From positions 38,714,488-38,778,487 of the forward strand of contig OX381721.1 of assembly GCA_947462335.1 (NCBI GenBank): a DNA stretch of 64,000 bases, read 5' to 3'. Both the position numbers and the translations under genes were made by a program. Below the pieces are notes generated by a model. It saw nothing but the letters and a program-made list of their open reading frames with translations. It was not told the origin of the DNA and made no database searches. The stretch comes from Harmothoe impar. Its lineage: Eukaryota; Annelida; Polychaeta; Phyllodocida; Polynoidae. How positions within the stretch are numbered: position 1 is the first letter of the stretch; each line of letters starts with the position of its first letter. Of this stretch, positions 41,315-57,974 are shown piece by piece.

Positions 41315-41787
41315 GAACCACTTGAAACATTTTTCGTTGTCTCTAATTGTTATTTGTCTGATCGGGTTACACCAAATTGTGTATAGCTTTTAATAAAAAT
41401 GAGTGGAAGTTATTTAAATACTTGGGCTATATAATTTTTATAATTTCTTAAAATCTCGTAACATGCTATAAGCTCAAAACAGTCTAATGCCAACATATGC
41501 CCTCCCATGGCATTTCCTATGCCTCTATCCACAATGGTTTCATACGGTTTGGAATTTACTTAAAAAATCAACCACTGTCTCAATTTAAGCCTCTAATGTA
41601 AGGCGGTCCTTAGCGCTAGTACCAGTCCAAACCCTTCAACAGAAATCCCCTAAGGCATAACGTAAAAAGCTCCCCCATGCCCTCTTATGGCATACTATCG
41701 CATACTTTATGCTTCAAAAAGTCAAACTCTGCCTTATCCCCCAATTCAGTCCCTAACGTAAAAACCCCTCACCCCCGCTATTACTTC
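41315..41787. other. Spacer between gene C and the Polinton
   Basis: Two loosely repeated phrases ('catatgccctcccatggcat', 'catgccctcttatggcatac'); no gene seen. The last six bases (TACTTC) could be the Polinton target duplication, but the other side is in the N gap. Confidence 0.45.
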
Positions 41788-42180
41788 AGAGTAGTATAGT
41801 ATGTATCGGAACGGGACTATAGTTAAGTACTGTTTATTACTCAATCGACATGCAGCCAATCAGAGGCCTCCATTTGGTCACGTGACCCGTTGCCATGGTA
41901 ACGTGACCTACTTAGGGCTCTCAGCCAATCAGAAGCCAGCATTCTGGGTGACCTACTGACCTACTTAGAAGCTCTCAGCCAATCAGAGGCTGGCATTCTG
42001 GTAACCATGGTAACGTGACCTACTTACGTCACGTGACCTACTTAGGCTCAGCCAATCAGAAGCCGGCATTCTGGTAACTAGGGTAACGTGACCTACTTAG
42101 GGTTTGTTTGTAAACAACACCACGTGGCTTTCTTGTTTGTAAACAACACCACGTGACACGTGACTGTTTGTAAACAAACA
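41788..42180 (+). repeat. Polinton left terminal inverted repeat
   Basis: Inverse of about 51920-52312 with few mismatches. Inside are sub-repeats of 'ctcagccaatcagaagcc', 'gtaacgtgacctacttag' and 'tgtttgtaaacaa'. Factor-type words seen: CCAAT boxes at 41856, 41925, 41979 and 42052; GTTGCCATGGTAAC at 41889; CACGTG several times; TGTAAACA at 42109, 42138 and 42169. Confidence 0.95.
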
Positions 42181-42293
42181 AACAAAAAAAGTTATGTAAC
42201 TTATATATAGAAATAAAAACACAACAAGATAATTTCTTTTCTTTTCATTTTATTCTTTATTTTTTCATTTTCAATCAGAAAAAACACACAAGT

Positions 42294-42593
42294 TTATGCT
42301 TTTTTAGCTTGCTTCTTCGATTTGCAGCAACTCAACAGGCCGCAAAGTCTCACGCCGCCGTCACTCGCACCACCACACCCCGGACGACTTTTCTCCAATA
42401 GACATTGCACGACTTTGGATAAATCCAACACCATTTCGGCAAGGCAGAGAATCTTTGCCTCCATGAAACGGCCGCCATCGCAACAACCCGTCACAACAGC
42501 ATCATCGATAGCTTCTGACTCACGACCCGGTCGCTCAGCTTTGGGCTTTTGCTCATGCGCATGACGCACTTCTTGGGGTTTCTTGTTCGACAT
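42294..42593 (-). CDS. Small Cys-containing Polinton protein, unknown
   Basis: 99 residues, last gene of the leftward series. Basic N-terminus (MSNKKPQEVRHAHEQKPKAE), a central hydrophobic helix (LCLAEMVLDLSKVVQCLLEK), then Cys pairs (LCGLLSCCKSKKQAKKA) that could be a palmitoylation or metal site. It overlaps the protease 3' end by about 100 bases in another frame. AATAAA words follow at about 42252-42262 (minus strand), suiting the 3' end of this transcript. Not recognised; could be accessory or structural. Confidence 0.6.
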   Translation of the reverse strand: MSNKKPQEVRHAHEQKPKAERPGRESEAIDDAVVTGCCDGGRFMEAKILCLAEMVLDLSKVVQCLLEKSRPGCGGASDGGVRLCGLLSCCKSKKQAKKA

Positions 42594-42943
42594 GCTTCAA
42601 TTAGGAAATGAACGCAATGAGGTCCACAGGTGTCAGCAGAAGTGTCTTGTAGTTGAATGCGGTTTCTTTGCCACTTGAACGGAGCAGAGCGTTCCACGAA
42701 AGACAAGAACTCCGCACTCAGCGGCGGTAAGCCGAAGGAATCAAAGTAGTACACTTCACCCGTGCTCGACACGTAAAACGCCACCCAATGCTGACCTGGT
42801 AAATGTTGCGGATCTGTGTTGCTCACGAAACAAGTGTCTTTGATAGGGTGCTTCGGAATAGTGTCACAAGAGAAAACGCCCAGGAAACGATGTTTTGTGT
42901 GAACGTTTTCCTTCAACACTCTGCTTATTTCAAGCGTGTTCAT
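42491..42943 (-). CDS. Adenovirus-type maturation cysteine protease (Polinton PRO)
   Basis: 150 residues from the ATG at 42943, 29 bases after the capsid gene stop; the frame is open further upstream, but that part overlaps the capsid gene. Catalytic set visible: His52 in GQHWVAF, Asp68 in YYFDSFG, Gln97/99 and Cys106 in ADTCGPHCVHFL, the order of C5/Ulp1-type proteases. In adenovirus and Polinton-like viruses this enzyme trims capsid precursors during maturation. Location next to the major capsid gene is usual. All key residues are present, so it should be active. Confidence 0.93.
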   Translation of the reverse strand: MNTLEISRVLKENVHTKHRFLGVFSCDTIPKHPIKDTCFVSNTDPQHLPGQHWVAFYVSSTGEVYYFDSFGLPPLSAEFLSFVERSAPFKWQRNRIQLQDTSADTCGPHCVHFLIEACRTRNPKKCVMRMSKSPKLSDRVVSQKLSMMLL

Positions 42944-42972
42944 ACGATACGCCAAGTACCGCCGTCTTGTCT

Positions 42973-44277
42973 TCAGTTCATGTGGTAGTCGGTGACGGGG
43001 TGTCGATCTCGGGTCAGCTCGACGACGTTGTCGTACACCAAGTAGAGTAGCACCGTTGTTGTCGCTTGTAGCGCCGAGCGGAAACTGACTTCCAACCTCA
43101 GCTGACCCGCTCTTATAAGGTTCACGCGACACCCGTCGTGCGATCTGTCTGGGGTTAAGTCGAGGGGGAACACCGTGTAACCGTTCAGGAATTGTTCGTA
43201 TGAAATACCGCAGGAGCGCGCGCCCTCGTACATCCCCGTTTCCGTGTGTAGCGCCAAGTACTCTCTCACGGCCGCTTTGGTCTTAAAGTCGGGCACGTAG
43301 GCGTCGTTCGGCACTTTCTGATCGTTCACTATCACTTGAAGCGAGCTGATGTCGTAATGCTTCATCTCGAACGGGTTCTTGGTGTAGCTACCGTTGAAGG
43401 CGTCGTGGTCAAGGAAGCAAATCATCATCGACTTGGGAAGCTGGCCTGTGTTGGAGTGCGTGTAGCTGTGATCTCTGTTACCTTGAGGGATGGCGTAGGT
43501 CGTCACCTCCACTCTGTTCACCGGGTAGTCGAAGGGCCCGTGTTCTATCACCGCTCTCTCGTGCGTTTCCGCTACAGCGTCCGCCACCAGCACGCGTCGC
43601 ACGTAGAGCTTTGCTTTGTAGATCTTCAAGCTGTAGCCTCCGTCAGCGGCGCACATCAGATAGAAAGAGGGCGCCGCTTGTTTCAGAGTGAGATTGATTT
43701 CTGTCTCTCCAACGATGAGCTTCGGTTGATGAGCCAGGTCAAAGTGCAGTCGCGCCATCAGCGAAAAGCGCTTGTTGGAGATTAGCTTCTTGCGCGCTTT
43801 GTACCCCGCATTCGCGTCAGTCAACGTGTCAAACTGACCGGGCGTATCTTCATGCCACCCCTGGGCGCTCATGACGCCGTCCTTCACGTCTTTGTTGTAG
43901 TTGAGTAACCCTTCCAAGTAAGCTCGGTAAGGGTAGGTCTCGGTGTTGCCAGACACTTTGAAACCGCCGATGGAGACTTGGACGTCTTTGAAGAGCGAGT
44001 GAGCCAAGTTGTTCACCGGAGCTACCGCGTCGGTGGCCTCGATCGCCGCTCCGTCCTTTAGCACTTGACATTCCAGATGAAGGTAATTCTCGTTCAGGTC
44101 TGTGTACTCTTGCGACTTGTTGATGGTGAAATTTATGTTACCTCCATCCTCTAAAGAGTTTTTTGTTTCTATCCCCAGGAAAGACGACTTTAAGATAGTA
44201 GTCTGAGTCGGCGCTACGGTGTGCAGGTCGAGCTCAGAGAGCGCGCACTCGTTACTGCTCTCGTGTACGTAAGCCAT
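42973..44277 (-). CDS. Polinton major capsid protein (double jelly-roll)
   Basis: 434 residues. The N-terminus (MAYVHESSNECALSELDLHT) and the PVNNLAHSLFKDVQVSIGG and TYPYRAYLEGLLNY blocks are typical of the Polinton capsid family often annotated as 'F54H12.2-like'. The family forms hexon-like trimers that build an icosahedral shell. Length fits. The frame is intact with no stop or frameshift. A TATA-type box (TATAAATAAAAAG, 44339-44327) lies 50 bases before the ATG, so this gene probably has its own late-type promoter. The protease follows directly and may share the transcript. Confidence 0.93.
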   Translation of the reverse strand: MAYVHESSNECALSELDLHTVAPTQTTILKSSFLGIETKNSLEDGGNINFTINKSQEYTDLNENYLHLECQVLKDGAAIEATDAVAPVNNLAHSLFKDVQVSIGGFKVSGNTETYPYRAYLEGLLNYNKDVKDGVMSAQGWHEDTPGQFDTLTDANAGYKARKKLISNKRFSLMARLHFDLAHQPKLIVGETEINLTLKQAAPSFYLMCAADGGYSLKIYKAKLYVRRVLVADAVAETHERAVIEHGPFDYPVNRVEVTTYAIPQGNRDHSYTHSNTGQLPKSMMICFLDHDAFNGSYTKNPFEMKHYDISSLQVIVNDQKVPNDAYVPDFKTKAAVREYLALHTETGMYEGARSCGISYEQFLNGYTVFPLDLTPDRSHDGCRVNLIRAGQLRLEVSFRSALQATTTVLLYLVYDNVVELTRDRHPVTDYHMN

Positions 44278-44326
44278 TGTGTTCTCTCTTCATGCGGCCG
44301 ACAGACTGACGCCGACCGCCTCCAGT

Positions 44327-44339
44327 CTTTTTATTTATA
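44327..44339 (-). promoter_or_regulatory. TATA box of the major capsid gene
   Basis: TATAAATAAAAAG on the minus strand, 50 bases upstream of the capsid ATG. Confidence 0.7.
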
Positions 44340-44356
44340 CCTGAACGCCTAGGCGC

Positions 44357-44785
44357 TTACCGGTCGAATACATCCCCTCTACGTCTCTTGCAAGAGCCAC
44401 CGCCCGTCTGAGGGGAATGCCCACGACGACGTTTCGACCCTTTCTTAGACGCGACAGGCGTCTTTCCTCCCGAGAACGCCGTACTCGCCAGTCTCTTCAG
44501 AGCGCCTGCGCATCGGTCTTTCACGCTGCTCTTTAAAGTCCGACCCGCCAGCACATCTTTAGCTACGCCCACACCGGCGCGGAGCAGCGTTTTTCCCACC
44601 GACTTCAATAGCGGGGTAGCCGAGCGCATCAGACCTAACAGAGCGCCGCCTAAACCGTGCCCGCTCTGGAAAGAGCGCCCGCTGTACACGTTGACGCCGT
44701 TGCCCAGCTGCGCGTTGTAGTAATCGCTGTACCCTCTGCCGACGGTGCGCCTGGGTGGAAAGTACGGAACGCGTTGACGCATCAT
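44357..44785 (-). CDS. Small basic Polinton protein, candidate minor virion component
   Basis: 142 residues, strongly basic. The N-terminal FPPRRTVGRGYSDYYNAQLG, a central GGALLGLMRSATPLLKSVGK TLLRAGVGVAKDVLAG amphipathic Gly/Ala/Leu segment, and a Lys/Arg-rich tail (GSKRRRGHS, CKRRRGDVF) match a protein usually encoded between the two capsid genes in Polintons. A role in DNA binding or membrane disruption, like adenovirus pVI/pX, has been proposed for such proteins; here that is inference. 11 bases separate it from the penton gene. Confidence 0.75.
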   Translation of the reverse strand: MMRQRVPYFPPRRTVGRGYSDYYNAQLGNGVNVYSGRSFQSGHGLGGALLGLMRSATPLLKSVGKTLLRAGVGVAKDVLAGRTLKSSVKDRCAGALKRLASTAFSGGKTPVASKKGSKRRRGHSPQTGGGSCKRRRGDVFDR

Positions 44786-44796
44786 TTTCTTCTCTT

Positions 44797-45915
44797 TCAG
44801 CGCTCAATAGGTCTCAGATGAAGTGTCGCGGTCACCTCGCCTCTACCGAAGGGGATGGAATGACCGGATCGGTCTCTTAAATAGATGCCGACCTCGGTAA
44901 ACCTCTTGGATTTCAAGGGGAAATAATCCAAATGGGGAAAACTGATAGCTTGCACGCCACCTCGACGCTTTCCGCCTCTGTCCACCGCCACGCAGCGCAA
45001 CAGCGGCACTTGCATGTCGCCCACACGTCTCTCCTGGATCATGTCGGTGTATATGTACACAGAGTGCACGTCCCCGTAAACATCCATCGAGTAGGCGCCG
45101 GTAGTCGGCGACGCGAAACACGTCTTCTCTCCGAAGCCTAGAACGCATGCGAGATGCTGACTCAGCAGGACAGCACAGTGTCTCGGCGGTTTGATGGTGA
45201 CGCGTTTCGTCTTGGCGTTGTACGATAAGATCCGCATCGGTTTGAGCAAGAAGCTGTCGCCCTCTAGTCTGTCATCTCGCAACGTCTCACTCAAGCGCTC
45301 GATTAGGGTGTGGTTGCTTCCGGTGAAAATAGGAGGTATCTCGAATATGTTTGGCATGAAACTGCGCACTCCCATGTCCTTCTCCATCTTTTCGATCATC
45401 TGTCTTGCTTGATGGCTGATCGTCTTCTTCTTCACCGCCGGGGACAAGAACTGCTTGTATACGGCATTCGTCTGTCTCAAGTCGACCTCTCTCTTGAACC
45501 TTTTTGTTTCCGGTTTCAATTGCTGCTCTTCCGACGTGTCTGATATCTCTTCCACCGTTACATAGCTCGCTTCCTTCCAGTTCAGCGGGAATTTTGAGCT
45601 GAACGTTAGCTTGCTCAGACCGTTCGCGTTTTTCATTCTCTTCCAGTCTACCTGTGGTTTTTTTCCTTCGGAGAAATTAGTTTCTTTTAAAACCTGGATC
45701 GCCTCCTCTAGCGAACCTTTGGTGCGCAGAGGAACAACGATGATCAAGTCGTCGTCGTGCACGTTAGTCCATTCTGTAGGGAGGATGATCTCAGTCAGAG
45801 CCGCTTCGTACGCTTCGGGCAGAAGGAGCGGCGAGTCGAAGTGAGTTCGGAAAGACGTCAAGCTGTTGTCAGGATAATACTCCATAGAGCTGTTGCTAGG
45901 TAGAGTGATGTTCAT
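44797..45915 (-). CDS. Polinton minor capsid (penton-like) protein
   Basis: 372 residues. The start MNITLPSNSSMEYYPDNSLT, then FRTHFDSPLLLPEAYEAALT EIILPTEW, is the typical opening of the Polinton single-jelly-roll penton protein. The family forms the vertices of the capsid. The C-terminal part (CAVLLSQHLACVLGFGEKTC; VGIYLRDRSGHSIPFGRGEV) fits the same family. Intact frame, five bases from the integrase stop. Identification is by characteristic N-terminus and position, not by structure. Confidence 0.85.
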   Translation of the reverse strand: MNITLPSNSSMEYYPDNSLTSFRTHFDSPLLLPEAYEAALTEIILPTEWTNVHDDDLIIVVPLRTKGSLEEAIQVLKETNFSEGKKPQVDWKRMKNANGLSKLTFSSKFPLNWKEASYVTVEEISDTSEEQQLKPETKRFKREVDLRQTNAVYKQFLSPAVKKKTISHQARQMIEKMEKDMGVRSFMPNIFEIPPIFTGSNHTLIERLSETLRDDRLEGDSFLLKPMRILSYNAKTKRVTIKPPRHCAVLLSQHLACVLGFGEKTCFASPTTGAYSMDVYGDVHSVYIYTDMIQERRVGDMQVPLLRCVAVDRGGKRRGGVQAISFPHLDYFPLKSKRFTEVGIYLRDRSGHSIPFGRGEVTATLHLRPIER

Positions 45916-45919
45916 TTTG

Positions 45920-47056
45920 TTACGTTATTTTTTTGACGGGGATCCACTCGTTGAACTTGTCGTCGTAACCTAACCAACGTACGAAAGCTAACTCTTTACC
46001 GTCGACGGTCTTGCGGCGCAACACCTCGTCTATCAGGTAGTTGTTGTCGTAACGACTCTTGTACACCTTCTGAACCTCTTCCGGGTAGAAGACGCCTTTT
46101 ATCTCCTCGCCCTTGTCGTCTTTCAGCTCGAACCCTCTGCTTCCCAACGTCTTAGCAACGTCGACCACTTCCTCGCGCCAGTTTCCCTCGTACCCTTTGT
46201 CGAAGGCGCCTTTAGTTCTCAACATCCTCACTCTGTCACCCGGAGCGATGACGTCGACGGCGGACGTCTTTGTTTTTTTCTTCTTTTTCCATATTTCGTC
46301 GATTTGTTTGTTAGTTGGGAGATCTTGTCGGTAGAAAACTGTTTCGCTGTTTTCCGAGCTGACTTGAGCCGGCGCCATTTTCAACGTCTTGTGGTGAGTG
46401 CGATTGTAAGAAGACACTACATGGTGCAGCACGTCTACGTAGCGATACGTGCGCTTGTGTGTGAAATAACGCCACAGCTTCTCCTTCAGACTGCGGTTCA
46501 AGCGCTCCACTAGACTAGCTTTGATGTCGTCGTTCTCGCCAGTGAAGAACTCTATGCCCTCGCTCTTCAAGTGATCTTGAAAGATCTTGTTCAAAAACTC
46601 TTTCCCCTTGTCTGTCTGAACAGTGCGCGGTCGTCTCTCGCCAGGGCCTGTCATCTCTCGGAAGGCCTCGGTGACATCAGCGCCGCTCTTGGATTTAATG
46701 GGAACGGCCCACGCGTACCTAGAGAAAACGTCGATCGCCGTCACCACGTACCGGAAGCGGTCGTTGTGAGACGCCAAAGCTTGCATGTCCATCAGATCTA
46801 TCTGCCACTGCTGATCGATTGCGCCGGTTATAGTCTTGTTCCTTGCGAATTTTCTCCGAATGGGTTTATGTTTAGTGTAGGCGTCCAGCGACACTAAAGC
46901 ATCTCGGATGACGGCCGGGTTCAGGTGGCGAAAATGCTGTTTCTGGAGTTTAGTCACGCTAGTGAAACTGGAGGGCGCTTTGACGTCGGTATATCTAGCT
47001 ACTACGCGCTTCTTTTCTTTTTCCTTCTTGGTCAGTCTCTTCACTGGTTTGCCCAT
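45920..47056 (-). CDS. Polinton integrase, retroviral type, with chromodomain
   Basis: 378 residues. rve-fold catalytic triad: Asp87 (WQIDLMD), Asp149 (VQTDKGKEF), Glu184 (SLVERLNRSLKE), with 34 residues between the last two. A C-terminal chromodomain (about 335-378: NYLIDEVLRRKTVDGKELAF then VRWLGYDDKFNEWIP) may read histone marks and guide insertion. No N-terminal HHCC zinc finger is obvious; the N-terminus is Lys/Arg-rich. It joins element ends to host DNA and normally gives 6-bp target duplications. Overlaps the upstream gene by 16 bases. All catalytic residues are present. Confidence 0.96.
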   Translation of the reverse strand: MGKPVKRLTKKEKEKKRVVARYTDVKAPSSFTSVTKLQKQHFRHLNPAVIRDALVSLDAYTKHKPIRRKFARNKTITGAIDQQWQIDLMDMQALASHNDRFRYVVTAIDVFSRYAWAVPIKSKSGADVTEAFREMTGPGERRPRTVQTDKGKEFLNKIFQDHLKSEGIEFFTGENDDIKASLVERLNRSLKEKLWRYFTHKRTYRYVDVLHHVVSSYNRTHHKTLKMAPAQVSSENSETVFYRQDLPTNKQIDEIWKKKKKTKTSAVDVIAPGDRVRMLRTKGAFDKGYEGNWREEVVDVAKTLGSRGFELKDDKGEEIKGVFYPEEVQKVYKSRYDNNYLIDEVLRRKTVDGKELAFVRWLGYDDKFNEWIPVKKIT

Positions 47057-48246
47057 CGCGGGTCTCTTGAGGGCGTGAAAGACGAGCTCGCCGCTAGGCG
47101 GTTGCGCGCTTTCCTTTTCTTACTACGCGGCGCGCTCCTATAGGAAGTCGGAGTTTGGAAAAGTTCACGGTCGTCCTCCTCGTCGTCAGAGGATTGATCG
47201 TCCACCACCTGCAGAGAAGAGTCTGCTGCTGCTACTGCTGCTGCTGCTGCTGCTGCTTCTCCTTCTTCCGATTCGAAGCTCGGTCGTTTCCGACCTCTGT
47301 CAGCAAGCCGTGTGTCCAAACTTTGGCCAGGTCCGCTCGCTTTATACAGATGGTTTCCGATCAAGGCGTCTGTGGTGGGAACCGCTTCGCGCAGCGCTTT
47401 CGTGAACGGCGAGTAGCCCGCCGGTCTGGGCGCCGTCTTCCTGAACCTGGCGGCGTCGTTCAGTAAGTCCACTATGTTGATGCGATGCTCAGGTGGTATT
47501 CTCCGACCCGACATCTCGCGCACCGCCCCGTCCTCGTTCCACTTGATCACTCCGGATTTCTCCAATTGTTTGTACAGCTCCACGGTCCGGCGGCGACTCC
47601 TCTTGGGAACTTGGTTCGCCAACCGCTCGAGTAGGGACGCGCTGGCCTCTTCAGCAGACTGACGGAGGTGAGCCGGGGGCGAAGAAGAGTAGGACGAAGA
47701 GATGTTGCTGTTGTGGGGATTCGCGAGAAAAAATTGCAATCTATTCAACAACCTTCGGTATTTCAACATTTTCTCGCGCGATTCCAAAGTGGGGTCGTTC
47801 AACACTAAATCCAAGTCCCTGTAGATAAACTGTAGCACCTGGTGCAAGGCCGCGTCAGGATGAAGGGACTGCTCTGCCTGCTTGTGGTAATAGGCCATGT
47901 CGGCGGGTAGGCGGGCGGCGGTGGCAGGAGCGGAACTCTCGTTCTTTTCAGTGCGCTCATCAGGAAGAGGAGGAAGGTTTGGAGCAGTAGAAGTACTAGC
48001 AGCAGCGACTGCAGTAGTAGCAGCGCTAGTAGTAGCAGCAGCAGCGGGCACATGATGAAGTAGACCTGCTCGTGATGATTTGTAGAGCGTCTCAGGATCC
48101 ACGAGCGCTAAACGTTTGTAGTGTTGTTGCTGCTCTGAGTCCGTCATGGGGACGCCGGTGGCAATGACGCTGGTGGTGGCGGTAGTGGTGGTGGTGGTGG
48201 TGGTGGTGGTGCTGTCGGCGAGTAGGTGTCGAATGACGTGTCTCAT
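47041..48246 (-). CDS. Conserved Polinton protein of unknown role, with Thr/Ala/Ser repeats
   Basis: Frame of 401 residues. Two segments recur in animal Polintons: KRLALVDPETLYKS near the start, and a C-terminal block (VELYKQLEKSGVIKWNEDGA; IPPEHRINIVDLLNDAARFR; TTDALIGN). Between and after are trinucleotide-derived runs of Thr, Ala and Ser. Met34 (48147) is a better start than Met1: the conserved part begins there and a TATAAAG word (48267-48261) sits too close to the first ATG. The first ATG overlaps the stop of the preceding gene. The role is unknown in the family; a virion or assembly protein is possible. Confidence 0.75.
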   Translation of the reverse strand: MRHVIRHLLADSTTTTTTTTTTATTSVIATGVPMTDSEQQQHYKRLALVDPETLYKSSRAGLLHHVPAAAATTSAATTAVAAASTSTAPNLPPLPDERTEKNESSAPATAARLPADMAYYHKQAEQSLHPDAALHQVLQFIYRDLDLVLNDPTLESREKMLKYRRLLNRLQFFLANPHNSNISSSYSSSPPAHLRQSAEEASASLLERLANQVPKRSRRRTVELYKQLEKSGVIKWNEDGAVREMSGRRIPPEHRINIVDLLNDAARFRKTAPRPAGYSPFTKALREAVPTTDALIGNHLYKASGPGQSLDTRLADRGRKRPSFESEEGEAAAAAAAVAAADSSLQVVDDQSSDDEEDDRELFQTPTSYRSAPRSKKRKARNRLAASSSFTPSRDPRWANQ

Positions 48247-48575
48247 ATACGGAGAATGCTCTTTATAAGCGGTAAGGCCATCCCTATGAGAGCCGGAATG
48301 AGGAAACCTCCCTCTTGTACCAAGACGCGTCTCTTTTTTTTGATGGGCGTAGATTTTTTGCCGACCTCCCTCAACACGTCAGCCGATTCTCGAAGCTTGT
48401 CCAGTTGTTTGTCGCTGAGCGGGATGTTCCCTACCAGTAAATTGTGACAGATCTCACTCAACGCTGCGATCAGCTCGTCGCTTCCAGAGTCTATTAGATG
48501 CGAGCAGTCCTTTGGCGAGCACTTAGCTAAGTGCTTGAGAGTACCAAAGTGTCTTTCGAGTAGATGAGAAGACAT
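48243..48575 (-). CDS. Short conserved Polinton protein with C-terminal hydrophobic tail
   Basis: 110 residues. The middle (LIAALSEICHNLLVGNIPLS) and KKKRRVLVQEGGFLIPALIG near the end are a motif pair found in many animal Polintons. The last ~20 residues (GGFLIPALIGMALPLIKSIL) form a Gly-containing hydrophobic helix, perhaps membrane-active. Nine bases after the ATPase stop, overlapping the next start, so likely on one transcript. Function unknown in the family. Confidence 0.8.
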   Translation of the reverse strand: MSSHLLERHFGTLKHLAKCSPKDCSHLIDSGSDELIAALSEICHNLLVGNIPLSDKQLDKLRESADVLREVGKKSTPIKKKRRVLVQEGGFLIPALIGMALPLIKSILRI

Positions 48576-48584
48576 TTTTTTTTG

Positions 48585-49304
48585 CTACTGCTTTCTGTTG
48601 TTCTTTTTTTTGTCTAGCGGTACGAACACTAGCTGAGAGTGTATGGCCGTCAAAGAGGAGCGTATTCTCAGATCGTCAGGTGTTGACTGCTTGAAGTCCA
48701 GGAGGAGGTATGAGTGAGGTCGCTTGAGTTCATGGGTAAATATACTAGAGAGGGCCGCCGCGTTGGACGGAAACACCTGGCGAGACAGACTAGCTATTTG
48801 CCCCATGTCGCGCGGGTTCTTGAAAACGATCATGTAGTGAGCGTTCAGACTCATAGTTCGAAAGTCGGGTGATTTCTGGAAGAGGTTCTGAGTGATGTAT
48901 ATGACGCTCACGTTCCAGTGATGCGAGTATTTAGTAAAGATGTCGGCTACCACTTGCTGATTGGAACTGCTCATCAGATCGTCCAATATCAGTAGAGTGT
49001 GGGGTCGTACAGCGTCTTCTGCTACTTCCACGTCTCCCGCTATAGACTCTTTGCTAGGAAGACCTTCTCTGAATTCCACACCGTACCGATTTGCCATTTT
49101 TTCAAACAGAGGTTGCCACTCGCCGTAATGGTAAAAAGTCTTTTCCACCGGCGGCGTGACCAAATTGTTCACGTCGCTCAGAAATTGATCCACCAAGCGC
49201 GATTTTCCACAACCCGACGGACCGCTAATGATACAACTAAAGGGTCCTTGTAGTCGAGCGTCGAAATGAATTTCTGTGAAGAGTTTGCTTTTACTACTGG
49301 ACAT
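48585..49304 (-). CDS. Polinton genome-packaging ATPase (FtsK/HerA type)
   Basis: 239 residues. Walker A GPSGCGKS (28-35), Walker B TLLILDDL (103-110) and a sensor-type YITQNLF (136-142), the A32-like arrangement of Polinton and adintovirus packaging ATPases. Thought to pump DNA into the preformed capsid. Length matches the family. A CAATAAAAAGG word (49428-49418) about 115 bases upstream may act as a TATA box. Frame intact. Confidence 0.94.
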   Translation of the reverse strand: MSSSKSKLFTEIHFDARLQGPFSCIISGPSGCGKSRLVDQFLSDVNNLVTPPVEKTFYHYGEWQPLFEKMANRYGVEFREGLPSKESIAGDVEVAEDAVRPHTLLILDDLMSSSNQQVVADIFTKYSHHWNVSVIYITQNLFQKSPDFRTMSLNAHYMIVFKNPRDMGQIASLSRQVFPSNAAALSSIFTHELKRPHSYLLLDFKQSTPDDLRIRSSLTAIHSQLVFVPLDKKKNNRKQ

Positions 49305-49511
49305 TTTTTTTTGTTTTTTTTTCAGGACGCGTCAGAGAGCGGTTGTGTGTCTGACTGTCTGCTGTGTTTCTCACTCGAACGGTCGGTGGTGAATGGTTGT
49401 GGAGAAAAGTCCGCCGACCTTTTTATTGATTCCGGCCGGTGTCACAGTAGCGGCGGCAGAAGTGACTTTTTTTTGCGATAAAATTCTATTTTCACTCAAT
49501 AGTCATAAATG

Positions 49512-49544
49512 TTTGTATCAGACTCCAGAGGAGTCTGATACAAA
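49512..49544. terminator. Perfect 15-bp hairpin after the 216-residue gene
   Basis: TTTGTATCAGACTCC, three-base loop, exact inverse. An AATAAA on the minus strand lies just before it. It sits between the unknown gene's 3' end and the ATPase promoter, so it may mark an RNA end. A repeat relic is also possible. Confidence 0.45.
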
Positions 49545-49566
49545 TATTTATTTTTTTTTAAAAAAA

Positions 49567-49626
49567 GAAGAAGAAGAGGAGGAGGAGGAGGAGGAGGAGG
49601 AGGAGGAGGAGGAGGAGGAGGAGGAG
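49567..49626. repeat. (GAA)n/(GGA)n microsatellite
   Basis: About four GAA then about fifteen GGA units, in the probable 3' UTR of the unknown gene at 49660-50310; followed by a 23-base T run. Confidence 0.9.
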
Positions 49627-49659
49627 ATTAGTTTTTTTTTTTTTTTTTTTTTTGATCAT

Positions 49660-50310
49660 TTAGGCAAAGCTCGTCGCTTTGCCGTTTTTTTTTCTATTTC
49701 TGTGTTGTGACACGATCGTCTCGAAAAAGCAATAAGGCGTGTGAGCGCGGCGGTGACAAATACATATTGGAGCGTATGGTTTAAAATAGTGCGTCCCTAT
49801 CTTCTTCAATTCGGCTGCGTTGCAATATGCGGGATAACAAGTGACGACGTCGAAACGTTTAGAGACCGTGTTCACGTCGGCCACAACGCGCGCCCACCGA
49901 GTGGGAGCTGCAGTCGCTCCCAAGAAACCGATCGGCTTGTCGAATCGTTTCATAGCACTTATTCTCACTTTATAAGAGGAGGCAGGGTGAGGAGAGTAGC
50001 GGCGCTCTTTCTTTTCATGAAACGCCCAACGAGTGGGGGCGCTGAGAGCAGCTGTTATGCAATAGTAGAGTAAATGCTGTTCTGAGAAGACGGCTCTCGG
50101 CCATGTCGCTACGTTTTCCTTTTCCGCTCTTGTATAACGACGATGGCGCTCAGCTTTGCATTTCTCGAGAATTCGGTACGCCTCAAGAGAAGCGTGAACC
50201 TCAACTACGTGACGCTCTCTCCTTTGAGATAAAAAAATAGCCGGGCAGTTGAGGAGAGCGCTTTGTTCGCGCGACCGTCTTTTAGAAACTCGCGCCCTCT
50301 GCAGCGCCAT
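49660..50310 (-). CDS. Unknown Polinton protein, basic, Cys/His-rich end
   Basis: 216 residues from Met at 50310; the frame is open 14 codons further up, but MALQRARVSKRRSREQSALL is the more protein-like start. Two APTRWA repeats (SAPTRWAFHEKKERR and AAPTRWARVVADVN) suggest an internal duplication. The end holds CYPAYCN, CICHRRAHTPYC, possible zinc ligands. A TATAAAAG box (50535-50528) lies about 218 bases upstream, and AATAAA follows the stop. No homology recognised. It is the most upstream gene of the leftward set, a place where an early or replication gene could sit. Confidence 0.65.
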   Translation of the reverse strand: MALQRARVSKRRSREQSALLNCPAIFLSQRRERHVVEVHASLEAYRILEKCKAERHRRYTRAEKENVATWPRAVFSEQHLLYYCITAALSAPTRWAFHEKKERRYSPHPASSYKVRISAMKRFDKPIGFLGATAAPTRWARVVADVNTVSKRFDVVTCYPAYCNAAELKKIGTHYFKPYAPICICHRRAHTPYCFFETIVSQHRNRKKNGKATSFA

Positions 50311-50527
50311 ATTTCTTTCCTCCGAAACAAAAAAGACTGAGTGAAAATACAAATTTAAGAAAACAAAAAGCTCAAAGAAAAAAAATAAGCAATAAGCAGA
50401 CTCAGCTCGAAATTCCCTGCTGGCGTGATGGCGGTGACTGCAGGCGGTGGCGGCGGTCGGCTGGCCGGCGGTGGCGGTGTCGGCGGCGATGGTAGAAGGG
50501 TGTGTGGAAAGAGAGACGCATCTCAGT

Positions 50528-50535
50528 CTTTTATA
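50528..50535 (-). promoter_or_regulatory. TATA box of the leftward unknown gene
   Basis: TATAAAAG on the minus strand; with the plus-strand box at 51041 it frames a ~500-bp divergent promoter region. Confidence 0.55.
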
Positions 50536-51040
50536 GGAGCGGCGAGTCTGACATTTTCAGCTGTCGCATGCTGACCTGCTGCTAGCATAAGAGAAACAAA
50601 AGCCCTAATCACACTTTTCAGCTGGATCCTTCCACCCCGCCAGACATGGATCCCAGATGGGAAGGCGGTTTAAAATTAAATCCGTGTACCGACTGTCATA
50701 CAATAGGGTAATTAGTTGAACGCGTGTTACCTGTATAAAGGATTAACGGGTCATGGGCTCAGCGTGTGTATAGAAAAACAACTACAGGTAGCGTGAACAA
50801 AGCGACCCCCTCCCTTTCTGTCACTCTGTCTGTGACTAGAGGGTGCGCGTGTGGTAAGCGGCTTATATCTAAAGAAAAAAACAAATCACCCTCGCCTGTC
50901 ATCAGCAGACAGCCGGCTGGCGGCTGGAAAATGCGATTAGAGGGATGATGAGCCACGTAGTAAGCGACTTAAGGCTGATCTAAAGACCTGCCGTGAAGGG
51001 GCAGCTGGCCGGTGGCTTGAAAAAAGGCGGGGCGTAAGGG

Positions 51041-51048
51041 TATATAAG
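51041..51048 (+). promoter_or_regulatory. TATA box of the Ala-rich gene
   Basis: TATATAAG, 119 bases before the ATG at 51167; the leader contains an (ACT)n run at 51084-51127. Confidence 0.65.
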
Positions 51049-51088
51049 GGGAGTGAAACCACATTCAGCATCGTCATCATCGTTCACG

Positions 51089-51136
<48 letters not shown>

Positions 51137-51166
51137 GCACCGCGCCTCAATTTGCAGATCCTCGTG

Positions 51167-51802
51167 ATGGAAAGTTGCTACCGTGACATGAAGCGGAATG
51201 ACGAAGCGGCGCGCGAATGTGAAGCTGATGCTGTAGCCTCTGCTACTGCTGCTGCTAGTGCTGCTCAGCGTGCTACTGCTGCATTTACTGCGGCTGTTAG
51301 TGACGCGGGTCGTGATGACGTTGTTGTTGTTGCCGCTGCGGCTGTGACTGCTGCTGTTGCTGCCGCCGATGCAGCTACTCATGCCACCGATGCCGACGCT
51401 GCTGCTGCTGATGCTGTTGCGGCTGCCGATGACGCCGCTGATAACGCTACTAGTGCCCGCTCTGCCGCCCTTGCTACTGTCGCTGCTGCTGTTGTTGCTA
51501 ATGCTCACGCTACTGCTGCTGCCGCTGCTGCTACTGCTGCTACCGCTGCTGCCGAGGCTGCTGCCGCTGCTGCCGATGCTGCTGCCGATGCTGCCGATGC
51601 TGCTGCCGATGCTGATGTTAGCAGTCGCGTCGACAAAGAATCGTCATTTGTCACTCTTAAAGCCGCTCCAGTGGAACGCGCGACGGGTAGTAGGGCTACC
51701 AACGCGACGGCCGGATGGTGCAAATGGTGTCGTCGCTTCTGCTCGTGCGCTTGCTTTTCTTCCGGTCCTACCTGCTGCTGCTACGGTATGATAGTGTTAT
51801 AG
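51167..51802 (+). CDS. Ala/Asp-rich protein with Cys-rich tail, divergent Polinton gene
   Basis: 211 residues from MESCYRDMKRNDEAARECEA. About two thirds is an Ala-rich track with regularly spaced Asp (EAAAAAADAAADAADAAADA), which should form a long helix. A short mixed segment follows, then WCKWCRRFCSCACFSSGPTC CC near the end. GCT/GCC codons dominate, so the track probably grew from a trinucleotide repeat. It is the only rightward gene, with its own TATA box, next to the right terminal repeat. No family recognised; a structural or decoration protein is possible, but a frame kept open by codon repeats cannot be excluded. Confidence 0.55.
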   Translation: MESCYRDMKRNDEAARECEADAVASATAAASAAQRATAAFTAAVSDAGRDDVVVVAAAAVTAAVAAADAATHATDADAAAADAVAAADDAADNATSARSAALATVAAAVVANAHATAAAAAATAATAAAEAAAAAADAAADAADAAADADVSSRVDKESSFVTLKAAPVERATGSRATNATAGWCKWCRRFCSCACFSSGPTCCCYGMIVL

Positions 51803-51919
51803 TGTTTGAATGAGAACGCGCGTAGTTACACATAGACGCTGTTACAGATGTGCTTTTTTATTCGAAAATATAATTTTAACATAAGATGGAACTTGTTGTG
51901 TTTTTTTCTATATATACGT

Positions 51920-52312
51920 TGTTTGTTTACAAACAGGCACGTGTCACGTGGTGTTGTTTACAAACAAGAGAGCCACGTGGTGTTGTTTACAAACAAACCC
52001 TAAGTAGGTCACGTTACCCTAGTTACCAGAATGCCGGCTTCTGATTGGCTGAGCCTAAGTAGGTCACGTGACGTAAGTAGGTCACGTTACCATAGTTACC
52101 AGAATGCCAGCCTCTCATTGGCTGAGAGCTTCTAAGTAGGTCAGTAGGTCACCCAGAATGCTAGCTTCTGATTGGCTGAGAGCCCTAAGTAGGTCACGTT
52201 ACCATGGCAACGGGTCACGTGACCAAATGGAGGCCTCTGATTGGCTGCATGTCGATTGAGTAATAAACAGTACTTAACTATAGTCCCGTTCCGATACATA
52301 CTATACTACTCT
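51920..52312 (-). repeat. Polinton right terminal inverted repeat
   Basis: Inverse copy of 41788-42180 ending AGAGTAGTATAG on the minus strand. One flanking base (t) remains before the N gap. The CCAAT, CACGTG, GTTACCATGG-type and TGTAAACA words of the left copy are nearly all kept. Confidence 0.95.
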
Positions 52313-52313
52313 T

Positions 52314-52513
52314 NNNNNNNNNNNNNNNNNNNNNNNNNNNNNNNNNNNNNNNNNNNNNNNNNNNNNNNNNNNNNNNNNNNNNNNNNNNNNNNNNNNNNNN
52401 NNNNNNNNNNNNNNNNNNNNNNNNNNNNNNNNNNNNNNNNNNNNNNNNNNNNNNNNNNNNNNNNNNNNNNNNNNNNNNNNNNNNNNNNNNNNNNNNNNNN
52501 NNNNNNNNNNNNN
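52314..52513. other. Assembly gap of 200 Ns
   Basis: It begins one base after the Polinton end, so the target-site duplication cannot be checked. Confidence 0.99.
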
Positions 52514-52539: not shown

Positions 52540-53340
52540 GCTATACATTCATGCATCATGTCTTCTTTACACTAACCCCTTAAGGACAGCTTGTGTGAAC
52601 TAACCCTTTAAGGACAGCACACTGCTTTAACTACACAGTAATACATTCATGCATAATGACTTCTCTACACTAACCCTTTAAGGACAGGGCAGAACTCTTA
52701 CATATTAACCCTTTAAGGATGACATAGTGCTTCAACTGGACAGTGATGCATTTATGCATCATGACTCTTAGACAATAACCCTTCAATGATGGCATAGTGC
52801 TTCAATTGGACAGTGATTCATTATTGCATCATGACTCTTACATATTGACCCTTTAAGGATGGCATAGTTCTTCAACTGGACAGTGATGCATTCATGCATC
52901 ATGACTTCTGTAGACTAAACCTTTAAGGACGCCACAGTACATCAACTAGACAGTGATGCATTCATGCATCATGAGTCTTAGACAATGACACTTTAAGGGT
53001 GCCATAGTGCTTCAACTGGACAGTGATTCATTTATGCATAATGACTCTTACACAGCAACCCTTTAAGGACGGCATAGTGCTTCAACTGGACAGTGATGCA
53101 TTCATGCATCATGACTCTTAGAAAATAACCCTTCAATGATACATTCATGCATCGATCATGACTTGCATCATGACTTCTGTAGACTAACCCTTTAAGGACG
53201 GCACAATACTTCAATTGCACATTCATGCATTCATGCATCATGACTCTTAGACAATGACCCTTTAAGGATGGCATAGTACTTCAACTGGACGGTGATTCAA
53301 TCATACATCATGACTCTTAGACAATAACCCTTTGAGGACA
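52540..53340. repeat. ~82-bp tandem array
   Basis: About ten imperfect units with 'aaccctttaaggatggcata', 'gtgcttcaactggacagtga' and 'tgcattcatgcatcatgact'. Phrases overlap the dispersed palindromic AATGCAGCCC family seen in MARS1 introns. Confidence 0.85.
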
Positions 53341-54111: not shown

Positions 54112-56985
54112 TCATGGGGGTTTCCTGTTCTTGTATCCTTCTAACTGGATGCGTCTCTGTCCTTTCATATACGTCCCCAGCCAATGTTTTATTCTTAACT
54201 TAAAGCTCTCTTTAGAGTCTAGCAACTGAGTAGCAGTTGTTAATTTATTCCATAGAATTTTCCCTCTATACGCTGGCGACTTCTTTAGAAGAGTCAACCT
54301 TGGTTTAGGAAGCTTAAAATTAGACTTATGGTCTCCCCTAGTGCGCTTATTTTTCCCCAAGGGCGGGTTTTTCTTGTGTTTTCTGTAGATGAGAGAGAGA
54401 AGCAGCTCCTTTCTTCTTTGTTTCTGGGTGGGAGCTTCACATAGCTTGTGTAAGTTGGCTGTAGACACTTTACCAATCTTGACGCGCAGTATACAACGCA
54501 ATATTCTATTTTGAGCAGCTTGAAGCTGTTTGCGTAATGTTAAGGATGTGCCGTCAACTAAGAATGAACAGTAGTCAAAGTGTGGGAGTATGGATTGTTT
54601 GAATAAAGTTATAGCAGCATGGACAGGGATTAGGTGCCTGATCTTCCACAGTTTAAAATTTAGAAGATTAATTTTGTTCAGGATCTTCTTAGTATGTTTT
54701 TTGAAGTTAAGGTGCTTGTCCATGATGGCGCCGAGGTAGGTGTAGCTATCAACCCTCTTTAGGGATCTCCCCGAGATCTGAGGTGTCATGTCCGGACATT
54801 TCTTTATTCTTTTATTTGTGGCAAACCACATGAATTTAGACTTGTCTTCATTTATGGTTAATCCTAAGGATTTACATGTATCCCCTAGCTTTGTTAAACC
54901 TCCCTGCAAATCACTTAGGGCTTCTTCAGGAGAGGAGTTTGTACTGTACATAACCACATCATCAGCATACATTTTGATTTTGGCTGTACTTTGAAGTGAT
55001 GCTATTTTATTTACATAGTAAAGAAAGAGGGTTGGGCCGAGGACGGATCCCTGAGGTACTCCAAATTTAACTGTGACAACGTCAGAAAGGTCCCCATTTG
55101 CTAGGGTTTTATGATTTCTTCCAAAAAGATAGGCCTCTAGCCATTTTAACAAGTGAAGATCTGTCTTTCCACTTTTTAGGAGATTTAGTAGCATGGAATG
55201 GGAGACACAATCAAATGCTTTCCGTATATCAATATACGCTGCAGCTACTACCATCTTTTTGTCAAGCGCGTCGTAGATATCCTCTGTAAGATCATATATT
55301 GCCTCGGCCGTGCTGGTATTTTCCTGGAAACCATATTGGTTAGGGGATAGAACTTTATTTACCTTCCATTCTTTCATTAGAATTTTTTGCACTAGTTTTT
55401 CCATGACTTTACTTGGGAAAGGGAGTATCGAAATGGGTCTTAGGTTTGTTACTTTTGATTTACATCCCCCTTTTGGGATGGGGGTAATAGTAGCCTGAAG
55501 CCACTCCTTTGGGAAGGTCCCAGTTCTGTACGAGAAATTAAAAATATGTAAGAATTCATTTAGAGCTCCCTCCATAAGGTCTGTCATAACTGTTGATGAC
55601 ATGTCACTGACCCCTGATGGCTTGCTTTTGTCCAGGTTGTGAGTGATTTCTAGGACCTCTGCTTTGGTGAAGGTTGGTATCTCATTTGACGGCCCTTCGT
55701 AGGTGTCATCAGGAGGGGAATAGGGTGGGTCGAGTGTATTTAGTTCCGCTGCCAGTTTTTTTCCAATTTGACCATAATAATTGTTTATGTAGTTTGCAGT
55801 GTCTTGAACAAATTTTTTGGTGTTATCATCTTTCAGTTTTAGCTTTATTTTGGAGCGTGACGGCTTGATCAGTTTATTCATTTCTCTCCAGAACTTTTTT
55901 GGGTCTTTCTTGTATTTCTCCAGCTTACCTGTGACATAAGCCCCCCGGGCTTTCTTGACACTACAGGTAATTCGAGTTCTAAGATGCTTGGCTGCTTTCA
56001 GGTCTGGAGCATTCTTGTATTTCCTATATCTCCTCATGTGTAGATTTCTTCTATTTATTAACTTCAATGTGTCTGAATCCATCCATTGAGTGTAGTACTC
56101 TTTTACCTGAAAGGTTTTTTGAGGACAGGTGCTGTCCAAGTAAACCCGCGCTTTGCCCATCAAAATTTCAAGTTTTTCATCAATATTTTCAGAGTGATAA
56201 AAATCTGACCATTGTTGATACTTAAGGAATTCCTTAAAATTTTCTCCATTATAGTCTTTGTAGACTCTAGCTTTTACTGTGATTCTCTCAAAAAATTCCT
56301 TTCTTTTTTTCCTTACTACATATACTGGGTGATGGTCCGATAGTAGATCTGGTAGGACTCCTGACATGGCGACATATTTGGAGTCTGTGAGAATGTTGTC
56401 TATAGTGGTCCCACCAGGACATATGGTGCTGGGCCTAGTAACAGTTTTAATCAGCCAATTTAAATTTAGGTCCCTACATAGGTTTTTGACTTTCCGTGTG
56501 CTTGCAGCCTTATTGTTTTTAAAATTGACATTGAAGTCGCCCAGTATCCAATTTTCCCTTTTATTTCCATGGGCCTTGGTGACATGCTTAATAAACTTCT
56601 GTAGCTTACCTTTATGAGGTCGGTACACCGTGGTTATTCTCATTGCTTTGTTTTTTGGGCGATCAATATCTATCACTAGACACTCAATGTGTTTGTTAAC
56701 CTTGGTTAGAGTCTCATGAAGGGTTGCATGTGGGTAATATTTTTCACTTATGTAACATATAAGTCCCCCTGCATGGCTGCTTCTATCAAGTCTGAAATAT
56801 GACTTTCCTTCCCAATTTATTAGACTATCGTCATATCCTTCATGATACCATGTTTCTGAGATGGTTATTATGTCATATTTATTTAAGGCAGCTTTTACAA
56901 GGGGTAGCTTATCATTTAGACTCCTTGCGTTGAGATGGCACATTGAGATTCCCTTGTGTACACTATAAGTCCCAGAACTATCCAT
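54112..56985 (-). mobile_element. Non-LTR retrotransposon ORF2 (Jockey/CR1-like), intact
   Basis: 957 residues without interruption. The N-terminal AP-type endonuclease is seen in CHLNARSLNDK, ITISETWYH, WILGDFNVNF and LSDHHPVYV. Reverse transcriptase: ATITPIPKGG, LRPISILPFPSKVMEKLV, FGVPQGSVLGPTLFLYYVN and the catalytic YADDVVMYS. No RNase H or zinc-knuckle tail seen. The domain order fits the CR1/L2/Jockey group; the exact clade needs a tree. No ORF1 was found upstream, so the copy may be 5'-truncated or of a single-ORF type. An open frame of this length implies recent activity. Confidence 0.95.
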
Positions 56986-57974
56986 TTGGTTGGTTGCTGA
57001 GGTGTGTCATGTGGCTGCTGCTTGTAACCGGCGTCTTCAAAAGTAGAGAGGTGCATATATGAAAAGGCTTGAAAAATATAAACATGATGATCCCTGAGTC
57101 CAGTAATATGGTGCTGGAACCCTGGGTGAAACCTTCCAGGGCCGTAGCCAGCCTTGGTTGTGGGGGGGTGCTCATTTTGGGAAGGGTGGAACTCTTTTGG
57201 CTTTGCCAAAAGTCCGCCCGGGGGGGTATCGCAAGCGCAGCGCTGCGACTAGCTGGGGGGGTCTGGGGGCATGCCCCTCCAGGAAATTTTTGAAAAATAC
57301 ATGTAAAATGGTGCAATCTGAGGCATTCTGAAGAGATAATCCCATGACATTAAACGGAGGAATAACCCTTTTCTCCTTCCTCTCCCCTCTATCCTGTCTG
57401 TCCCCTGACCATTGTTGCCCTGGTATCAAAGTGTATGATGTGGAACAGAAAAAGAAGTTACCAAAAGCACCCTTCATGGGAGACGTAGTGAAAAGTACAT
57501 AGTTGAATTGCATTTATTACATTTATTATTGGTCACATATACATGTGTGAAATACAATTATTTAACCCTCCCACCGCCAGATTTCTCTGTAGTTTCGCCA
57601 AAAATTTGTTTAAAATGCTATTAGAATTGAGCAGCTTATATTGTCCACCCAACTTGGTCCCACCCCTTGGAGTTCCACCCACCCCGATCCCGCCAATTCA
57701 AGTTCTACCCAGCTAACAAAAAAACGTCATCTGACGTTACAATAACGTTTTCTGAAGGTTTGGTAAACGTTATAAAATGACTAAAATATGACGTTATCCG
57801 ACGTTAAAACGTTGACTCTAAATAACGTTATATTAGCGTTATATAAAAACGTTAGGATGTATAACGTTATGACAACGTTATATTACGTTTTTTGGGGTTC
57901 TGAATAGGCCTAAACAAAATCTCCAGGGTACTAATTACACTTCTCCCCTATAGAAGTTCTACAAGTTACTCTCT

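What the first reader, a model, noticed from the sequence alone, without database searches (positions are those of the whole stretch)
41788..52312. Intact Polinton with full virion set but no DNA polymerase B
Capsid proteins, protease, packaging ATPase and integrase are all uninterrupted, and the terminal repeats are nearly identical, yet no polymerase frame exists in the 10.5 kb. Polintons are defined by a protein-primed PolB. This one must use a helper element's polymerase or the host's, or one of its unknown proteins. It could be a compact, satellite-like capsid-forming lineage.
Basis: partly seen in the sequence, partly recalled or inferred. Interest (0 to 1): 0.78.

Follow-up and report, generated by a model that had tools for sequence, protein, structure and literature searches.

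The report
Polymerase-less, high-copy capsid-coding Polinton family
This animal genome carries well over a hundred near-identical copies of a 10.5-kb virus-like mobile element that keeps its capsid, packaging, protease and integrase genes but has no recognisable DNA polymerase, so something else probably copies it.

Summary
The element is 41790-52310 (10,521 bp): 392-bp terminal inverted repeats starting AGTAGT (the commonest vertebrate-Maverick terminus) and open frames for ATPase, integrase, capsid proteins, protease and smaller Polinton-type genes. No PolB: an Escarpia PolB that finds 10 of 10 PolB loci of this genome (E at most 2.8e-6) has no match in the element (best E 3.3). It is not a lone deletion copy. 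The same genome (1.51 Gb) shows at least 136 distinct places of the family: 97 scored MCP genes, all open, plus 39 further terminal repeats. Of 20 copies sampled, 19 are 10,393-10,533 bp long with perfect 6-bp target-site duplications. A 216-aa gene of unknown function, with three homologues (79-97%), sits where a PolB-bearing relative has PolB. PolB-bearing Polintons exist in the genome, but 0 of 68 PolB places lies within 25 kb of a listed copy, and MCPs at ten PolB loci are 22-27% identical. Best reading: satellite-like, capsid-coding, Polinton-derived element copied in trans. Polymerase-less elements are already mentioned for protists.

The parts
41784..41789 (.). left target-site duplication CTTCAG; right side shows CTT at 52311-52313 before the assembly gap
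   Evidence: 6-bp TSDs perfect in 19 of 20 other copies examined
41790..42181 (+). left terminal inverted repeat, 392 nt, starts AGTAGTATAG
   Evidence: end motif (AGT)2 as in PMC8097293 section 7
42491..42943 (-). adenain-like cysteine protease, 150 aa from the first Met after the MCP stop (open frame 42491-43282)
   Evidence: Pfam Peptidase_C5 4.6e-4, just under its cut-off; 36% identical to L001 protease; frame checked
42973..44277 (-). major capsid protein, double jelly roll, 434 aa (F54H12.2-like family)
44357..44785 (-). small basic protein, 142 aa, in the PW position (between minor and major capsid genes)
   Evidence: homologues in L003 and L004 and in own PolB loci L015 and L018; no match in L001 at E 1e-5
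44797..45915 (-). minor capsid (PX/penton-position) protein, 372 aa
   Evidence: 11 homologues; C-terminal part matches L001-L004; own model weak, pLDDT 59
45920..47056 (-). retroviral-type integrase with C-terminal chromodomain, 378 aa
   Evidence: Pfam rve 3.5e-13 (over cut-off), Chromo 9.5e-4 (under cut-off)
47041..48246 (-). large protein of about 401 aa (PZ position by order; start uncertain), conserved C-terminal domain
   Evidence: 35% to L001 and 36% to L002 over about 90 aa
48243..48575 (-). small protein of 110 aa (PM position by order)
   Evidence: 32-34% to L001 and L002; also in 6 of 10 own PolB loci
48585..49304 (-). genome-packaging ATPase, 239 aa
   Evidence: Pfam Adeno_IVa2 7.3e-5 (over cut-off), Pox_A32 4.3e-4 (under); 43% to L001 ATPase
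49660..50310 (-). 216-aa protein of unknown function, in the place that PolB has in L001 (directly upstream of the ATPase)
   Evidence: homologues P0132-P0134, 79-97% identical, 211-217 aa; no stop or gap in the aligned part (179-216 aa) in 10 of 10 copies
51167..51802 (+). Ala-rich 211-aa frame with Cys-rich tail, only plus-strand gene candidate noted
   Evidence: no Pfam; conservation not tested
51919..52310 (-). right terminal inverted repeat, ends ACTACT

Best explanation
A stable, recently amplified family of Polinton-derived, virion-gene-carrying elements without PolB, with an unrelated gene in the PolB place. Shown: the PolB-less 10.5-kb unit is itself what multiplied (many near-identical copies, same ends, perfect TSDs). 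Inferred: the linear DNA is copied from its AGTAGT ends by a protein-primed PolB supplied in trans by PolB-bearing Polintons of the same genome, then integrated by its own integrase, and can be packaged by its own capsid, ATPase and protease; that is, a satellite-like capsid-forming element, comparable in logic to a virophage but with a Polinton as helper.
For: TIR search: 40 scored matches at 705-711 bits, 1760 first-look candidates. MCP search: 97 of 97 scored places about 100% identical with open 438-aa frames, 2816 first-look candidates (the best-scoring ones, so chosen for intactness). 10 of 10 TIR-selected (of 40 listed) and 9 of 10 MCP-selected (of 97 listed) copies have the second end at 10,393-10,533 bp with a perfect 6-bp TSD. 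In the ten TIR-selected copies the stretch from ATPase into u216 matches the window at 97-99%, in one of them with an internal deletion in the ATPase. The genome has many PolB places, among them 28 similarly scoring ones with mostly 1177-1189-aa open frames (two compared are 99% identical), so polymerase in trans is available. Homologues of MCP at 72-94% (six), of the minor capsid protein at 79-98% (two, others 27-61%) and of u216 at 79-97% (three) suggest that the lineage has kept its genes beyond this genome's recent burst.
Against: No PolB element with this family's TIR was found (no significant TIR match in the PolB loci; no AGTAGT/ACTACT-type pair with TSD in ten PolB neighbourhoods), though those neighbourhoods often did not reach the element ends. 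The PolB elements seen are distant (MCP 22-27% identical). Arm-specific letters at three TIR sites are kept in 9, 9 and 10 of 10 right arms, which is not what frequent adenovirus-like panhandle repair of the arms would give. No expression, particle or extrachromosomal DNA data.
Confidence: 0.48

Rival explanations
1. The element moves like a cut-and-paste DNA transposon: its integrase excises and reinserts it and host gap repair or S-phase timing doubles it; no viral polymerase is needed and virion genes ride along or serve only cell-to-cell spread.
For: Very high copy number; integrase intact in the window; arm differences are preserved, as faithful duplex copying would do; Ginger DNA transposons with retrovirus-like integrases are a precedent (recalled, no call).
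Against: Capsid, ATPase and protease frames are open in the window, and homologous capsid proteins diverged by 20-28% are still of about full length, hard to explain if only integrase matters. No empty or footprint sites were examined.
Confidence: 0.3
2. The element carries its own, unrecognised replication initiator, the 216-aa protein in the PolB place (or the Ala-rich frame), which recruits host polymerase.
For: u216 has three homologues (79-97%), has no stop or gap in the aligned part in 10 of 10 copies, and lies where PolB lies in L001.
Against: No Pfam match in the 298-aa frame that holds it, no profile similarity to the L001 PolB (hhalign probability 0.2%); at 216 aa too short for a polymerase; accessory genes flank the core genes in most vertebrate Mavericks (PMC8097293 section 7).
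Confidence: 0.17
3. A non-autonomous deletion derivative of a still present PolB-bearing sister family with the same ends, that is, an ordinary transposon deletion product (this can go together with helper PolB in trans, so the odds given here overlap and do not add to one).
For: Gene order otherwise equals that of a PolB-bearing Polinton (L001). Only 97 of 2816 MCP candidates and 83 of 695 PolB candidates were scored, so a rarer sister family could have been missed.
Against: 0 of 68 PolB places within 25 kb of 137 listed family hits; MCPs of ten PolB loci only 22-27% identical; the PolB place holds a conserved unrelated gene and no PolB remnant that the L001 PolB can find. The clade has six sampled relatives at 72-94% MCP identity, but their PolB status is unknown.
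Confidence: 0.2

Closest known systems
Polinton/Maverick elements of animals (adintoviruses), e.g. the contig L001 from an Escarpia symbiont assembly
   Same: Ends (AGT)2//(ACT)2, TIRs of a few hundred bp, 6-bp TSD (vertebrate Mavericks); integrase, protease, ATPase, minor and major capsid genes in the same order ATP-small-large-INT-minor capsid-PW position-MCP-PRO on one strand (L001)
   Different: No PolB; 10.5 kb against 12.7-24.6 kb for intact vertebrate Mavericks; at least 97 copies with an open MCP frame against at most 38 intact elements per vertebrate genome in PMC8097293
Polymerase-lacking endogenous Polinton-like viruses of protists
   Same: Capsid-coding integrated elements without detectable DNA polymerase; Bellas et al. 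[quoted passage not shown]
   Different: Those are protist elements, often with helicase domains fused to an unknown domain; here no helicase or primase was recognised by Pfam (an RNA-virus-helicase P-loop model matches the ATPase under its cut-off), and the ends and integrase are of the animal Maverick type
Virophages (mavirus, Sputnik)
   Same: Satellite logic: own capsid, replication helped by another virus (inferred here)
   Different: Mavirus has its own PolB and helicase (PMC11071308 passages); no giant virus is implied here; the MCP only shares the fold
Meldviruses without recognisable PolB and integrase (PMC11071296)
   Same: Adenovirus-class virion genes without PolB (passages)
   Different: Those lack the integrase as well; this one keeps it and is integrated at high copy

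Membership tests
Polinton/Maverick | terminal inverted repeats with (AGT)2//(ACT)2 ends | tested here: met
   392-nt arms starting AGTAGT; motif per PMC8097293 section 7
Polinton/Maverick | 6-bp target-site duplication | tested here: met
   perfect in 19 of 20 other copies, the twentieth without an end in the stretch read; in the window 3 of 3 visible bases, the rest in an N gap
Polinton/Maverick | retroviral-type integrase with chromodomain | tested here: met
   (rve over cut-off; Chromo 9.5e-4, under cut-off)
Polinton/Maverick | adenovirus-like cysteine protease | tested here: met
   (4.6e-4, just under Pfam cut-off) and 36% to L001 protease in the same place
Polinton/Maverick | packaging ATPase | tested here: met
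   Adeno_IVa2 over cut-off; 43% to L001
Polinton/Maverick | double jelly-roll major capsid protein | tested here: met
Polinton/Maverick | minor (single jelly-roll) capsid protein | tested here: inconclusive
   homologue in the right place, but the model is weak (pLDDT 59) and was not fold-searched
Polinton/Maverick | protein-primed PolB | tested here: not met
   no match in the element with a probe that finds 10 of 10 control loci, no Pfam PolB in its frames, no room at the length seen in 19 of 20 other copies
Satellite/virophage-like element | dependence on a helper for replication | not testable with these tools
   no expression or replication data
Satellite/virophage-like element | own virion genes | tested here: met
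   particles themselves not shown

The most novel reading that the evidence does not exclude
An animal 'satellite of Polintons': a lineage that permanently gave up PolB, put a new conserved gene (u216) in its place, makes its own capsids and amplifies to hundreds or more copies on the polymerase of unrelated resident Polintons.
Probability: 0.25. Interest if true: 0.85.

Novelty: new variant of a known kind. Interest (0 to 1): 0.62.

Why it matters
Polintons are called self-synthesising because of PolB. A PolB-less relative that keeps the virion genes and is present in at least 136 places beside PolB-bearing ones (68 places among the scored hits) makes a long-standing question testable: whether Polintons can be exploited by satellites of their own, or whether the integrase alone can drive amplification. 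It also offers one genome in which putative helper and satellite can be followed together.

Tried and rejected
Single deleted copy: rejected. Degenerate PolB in the element: no match (an earlier run, printed only two rows per control and is superseded); u216 against the L001 PolB by hhalign, probability 0.2%. MCP, MCP-alignment and minor-capsid scans of IMG/VR gave no relatives. PHROGs gave transposase-type matches for the integrase and otherwise only weak ones. MCP sequence search of the PDB: nothing credible. The minor capsid model was too poor to use. TIR-versus-TIR and TSD scans in PolB loci found no ends. N/S of variants among the window and nine copies in MCP (10:2, all 12 singletons, one of the ten N presumably the stop seen in one copy; expected 2.9) and among five rows in ATPase (7:2, expected 3.0) does not differ clearly from neutral at these small numbers: it reflects decay after insertion and says nothing about selection on the source (rows with gaps or incomplete ends were dropped: 1 of 10 for MCP, 6 of 10 for ATPase). 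Copy counting by exact pattern did not complete. Apart from the window, 39 TIR-selected and 96 MCP-selected places do not overlap, which hints at many more copies, but both lists are cut at the best scores, so no figure above 136 is claimed. Papers searched for PolB-less Polintons; of the papers opened, only Bellas et al. and two preprints speak to it. Two key papers (Jeong 2023, Starrett 2021) are not held, so absence from print is not claimed.
Full report
Observation. The inverted arms, the minus-strand gene set and the absence of PolB are all there. Comparison with other copies trims the element to 41790-52310: its ends read AGTAGT...ACTACT, and the two bases outside on the left are part of the target-site duplication CTTCAG. 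On the right only CTT is visible before a 200-N assembly gap, consistent with the same duplication. The element is richer in G+C (45-56% per kb) than most of its flanks (mostly 34-48%; a repeat-rich stretch at 7-9 kb reaches 56-57%).

A PolB-bearing yardstick. A scan of bacterial genome contigs found four loci that are most simply read as animal Polintons contaminating MAGs. L001 (Escarpia tubeworm symbiont assembly) carries a 1409-aa PolB frame, open at the contig edge (DNA_pol_B_2 2.9e-9), directly upstream of the ATPase and then the window's genes in the same order; seven of them match by tblastn, while the PW-position protein does so only by place. In the window the PolB place holds u216, a 216-aa protein with three database homologues of nearly equal length at 79-97% identity and no similarity to that PolB. 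It has no stop or gap in the aligned part (179-216 aa) in 10 of 10 other copies; in one the alignment stops 7 residues short of the C-terminus.

The family. The window lies in a 1.51-Gb genome of 736 contigs. The left arm has 40 scored matches at 705-711 bits with 1760 first-look candidates. The MCP has 97 scored matches, all about 100% identical with open frames, and 2816 first-look candidates; these are the best-scoring ones, so intactness is partly selected. The two lists share only the window itself, and no two listed arms lie within 12 kb of each other, giving 136 distinct places as a lower bound; the MCP copies spread over 21 contigs. Of ten copies chosen by arm (plus-strand ones among the 40), ten end at 10,393-10,533 bp with perfect 6-bp TSDs. 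Of ten chosen by MCP (minus-strand ones among the 97), nine do so at 10,496-10,528 bp and one has no end in the 300 bp read. In the ten arm-chosen copies the MCP is 96.6-99.8% identical to the window, uninterrupted and full-length in 8 of 10 (one has a 42-nt in-frame deletion, one a stop); the ATPase is uninterrupted over the aligned part in 8 of 10. Variants counted among the copies are singletons with an N:S ratio not clearly different from neutral, as expected for recent insertions from few sources. Three left/right differences between the arms are kept in 9, 9 and 10 of 10 right arms.

PolB elements in the same genome. PF03175 gives 129 matches (83 of 695 candidates scored), collapsed by hand to 68 places, among them 28 similarly scoring ones with mostly 1177-1189-aa frames and others mostly of about 1400-1570 aa. 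None of the 68 lies within 25 kb of any of the 137 listed family hits. Ten PolB neighbourhoods contain Polinton genes, but with MCP only 22-27%, integrase 30-34% and ATPase 31-37% identical to the window, and without a significant match to its TIR. The ends of these elements were mostly outside the stretches read, and no TSD-flanked AGTAGT-type pair was found. A tree of 42 MCPs (window, 32 of the 120 listed homologues, L001 and eight of the ten PolB loci) sets the window and six database relatives (72-94% identical), with a sister group P0007-P0010, apart from L001 and seven of the eight own PolB-linked MCPs; the eighth (L015) joins the window's side by a very long branch and its place is unsure. 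Whether P0001-P0010 have PolB is unknown.

How it most likely works. Shown: a PolB-less unit has multiplied recently, with Polinton ends and TSDs. Inferred: copying is done in trans. Polintons of the same genome supply a candidate polymerase; the virion genes, kept in relatives that have diverged by up to a quarter, suggest that packaging matters to the lineage. The main rival is integrase-driven cut-and-paste with host repair, then an unnoticed PolB-bearing sister family, then a self-encoded initiator such as u216.

What is known. In intact vertebrate Mavericks PolB is part of the conserved gene set, sizes are 12.7-24.6 kb, copy number reaches 38 intact elements per genome, and (AGT)2 ends are commonest (PMC8097293, passages and section 7). 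Bellas et al. note that many protist elements lack a detectable polymerase (PMC10120064, passages); polinton-like viruses mostly lack pPolB and the rve integrase and have other replication proteins (PMC11071308, passages); a preprint reports virion-gene genomes lacking PolB and integrase (PMC11071296, passages). The element fails the PolB criterion and is therefore filed as a Polinton-derived variant, not as a Polinton in the strict sense.

Noticed in passing
window 54112-57006 (-): Uninterrupted 964-aa frame of a non-LTR retrotransposon (RVT_1 1.3e-34, weak endonuclease match).
   Followed up: no
window 52314-52513 and 52694-53338: A 200-N assembly gap touches the right end of the element, followed by a 70-bp satellite array.
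   Followed up: partly
window 51167-51802 (+): Ala-rich frame of 211 aa with a Cys-rich tail, the only plus-strand gene candidate noted, downstream of a TATA-like stretch.
   Followed up: partly
L015-L018, L055-L058: The 1177-1189-aa PolB family seems to lie in a unit of more than 24 kb shared at 97-99% between two chromosomes; at the upper end of or above the sizes given for vertebrate Mavericks.
   Followed up: partly
L001-L004: Contigs filed under bacterial MAGs carry animal-type Polinton genes, probably host contamination.
   Followed up: partly
L050 (right arm of the copy at C4:7739946): One copy has left-arm letters at two of the arm-specific sites of its right arm, possibly a case of arm homogenisation.
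   Followed up: no
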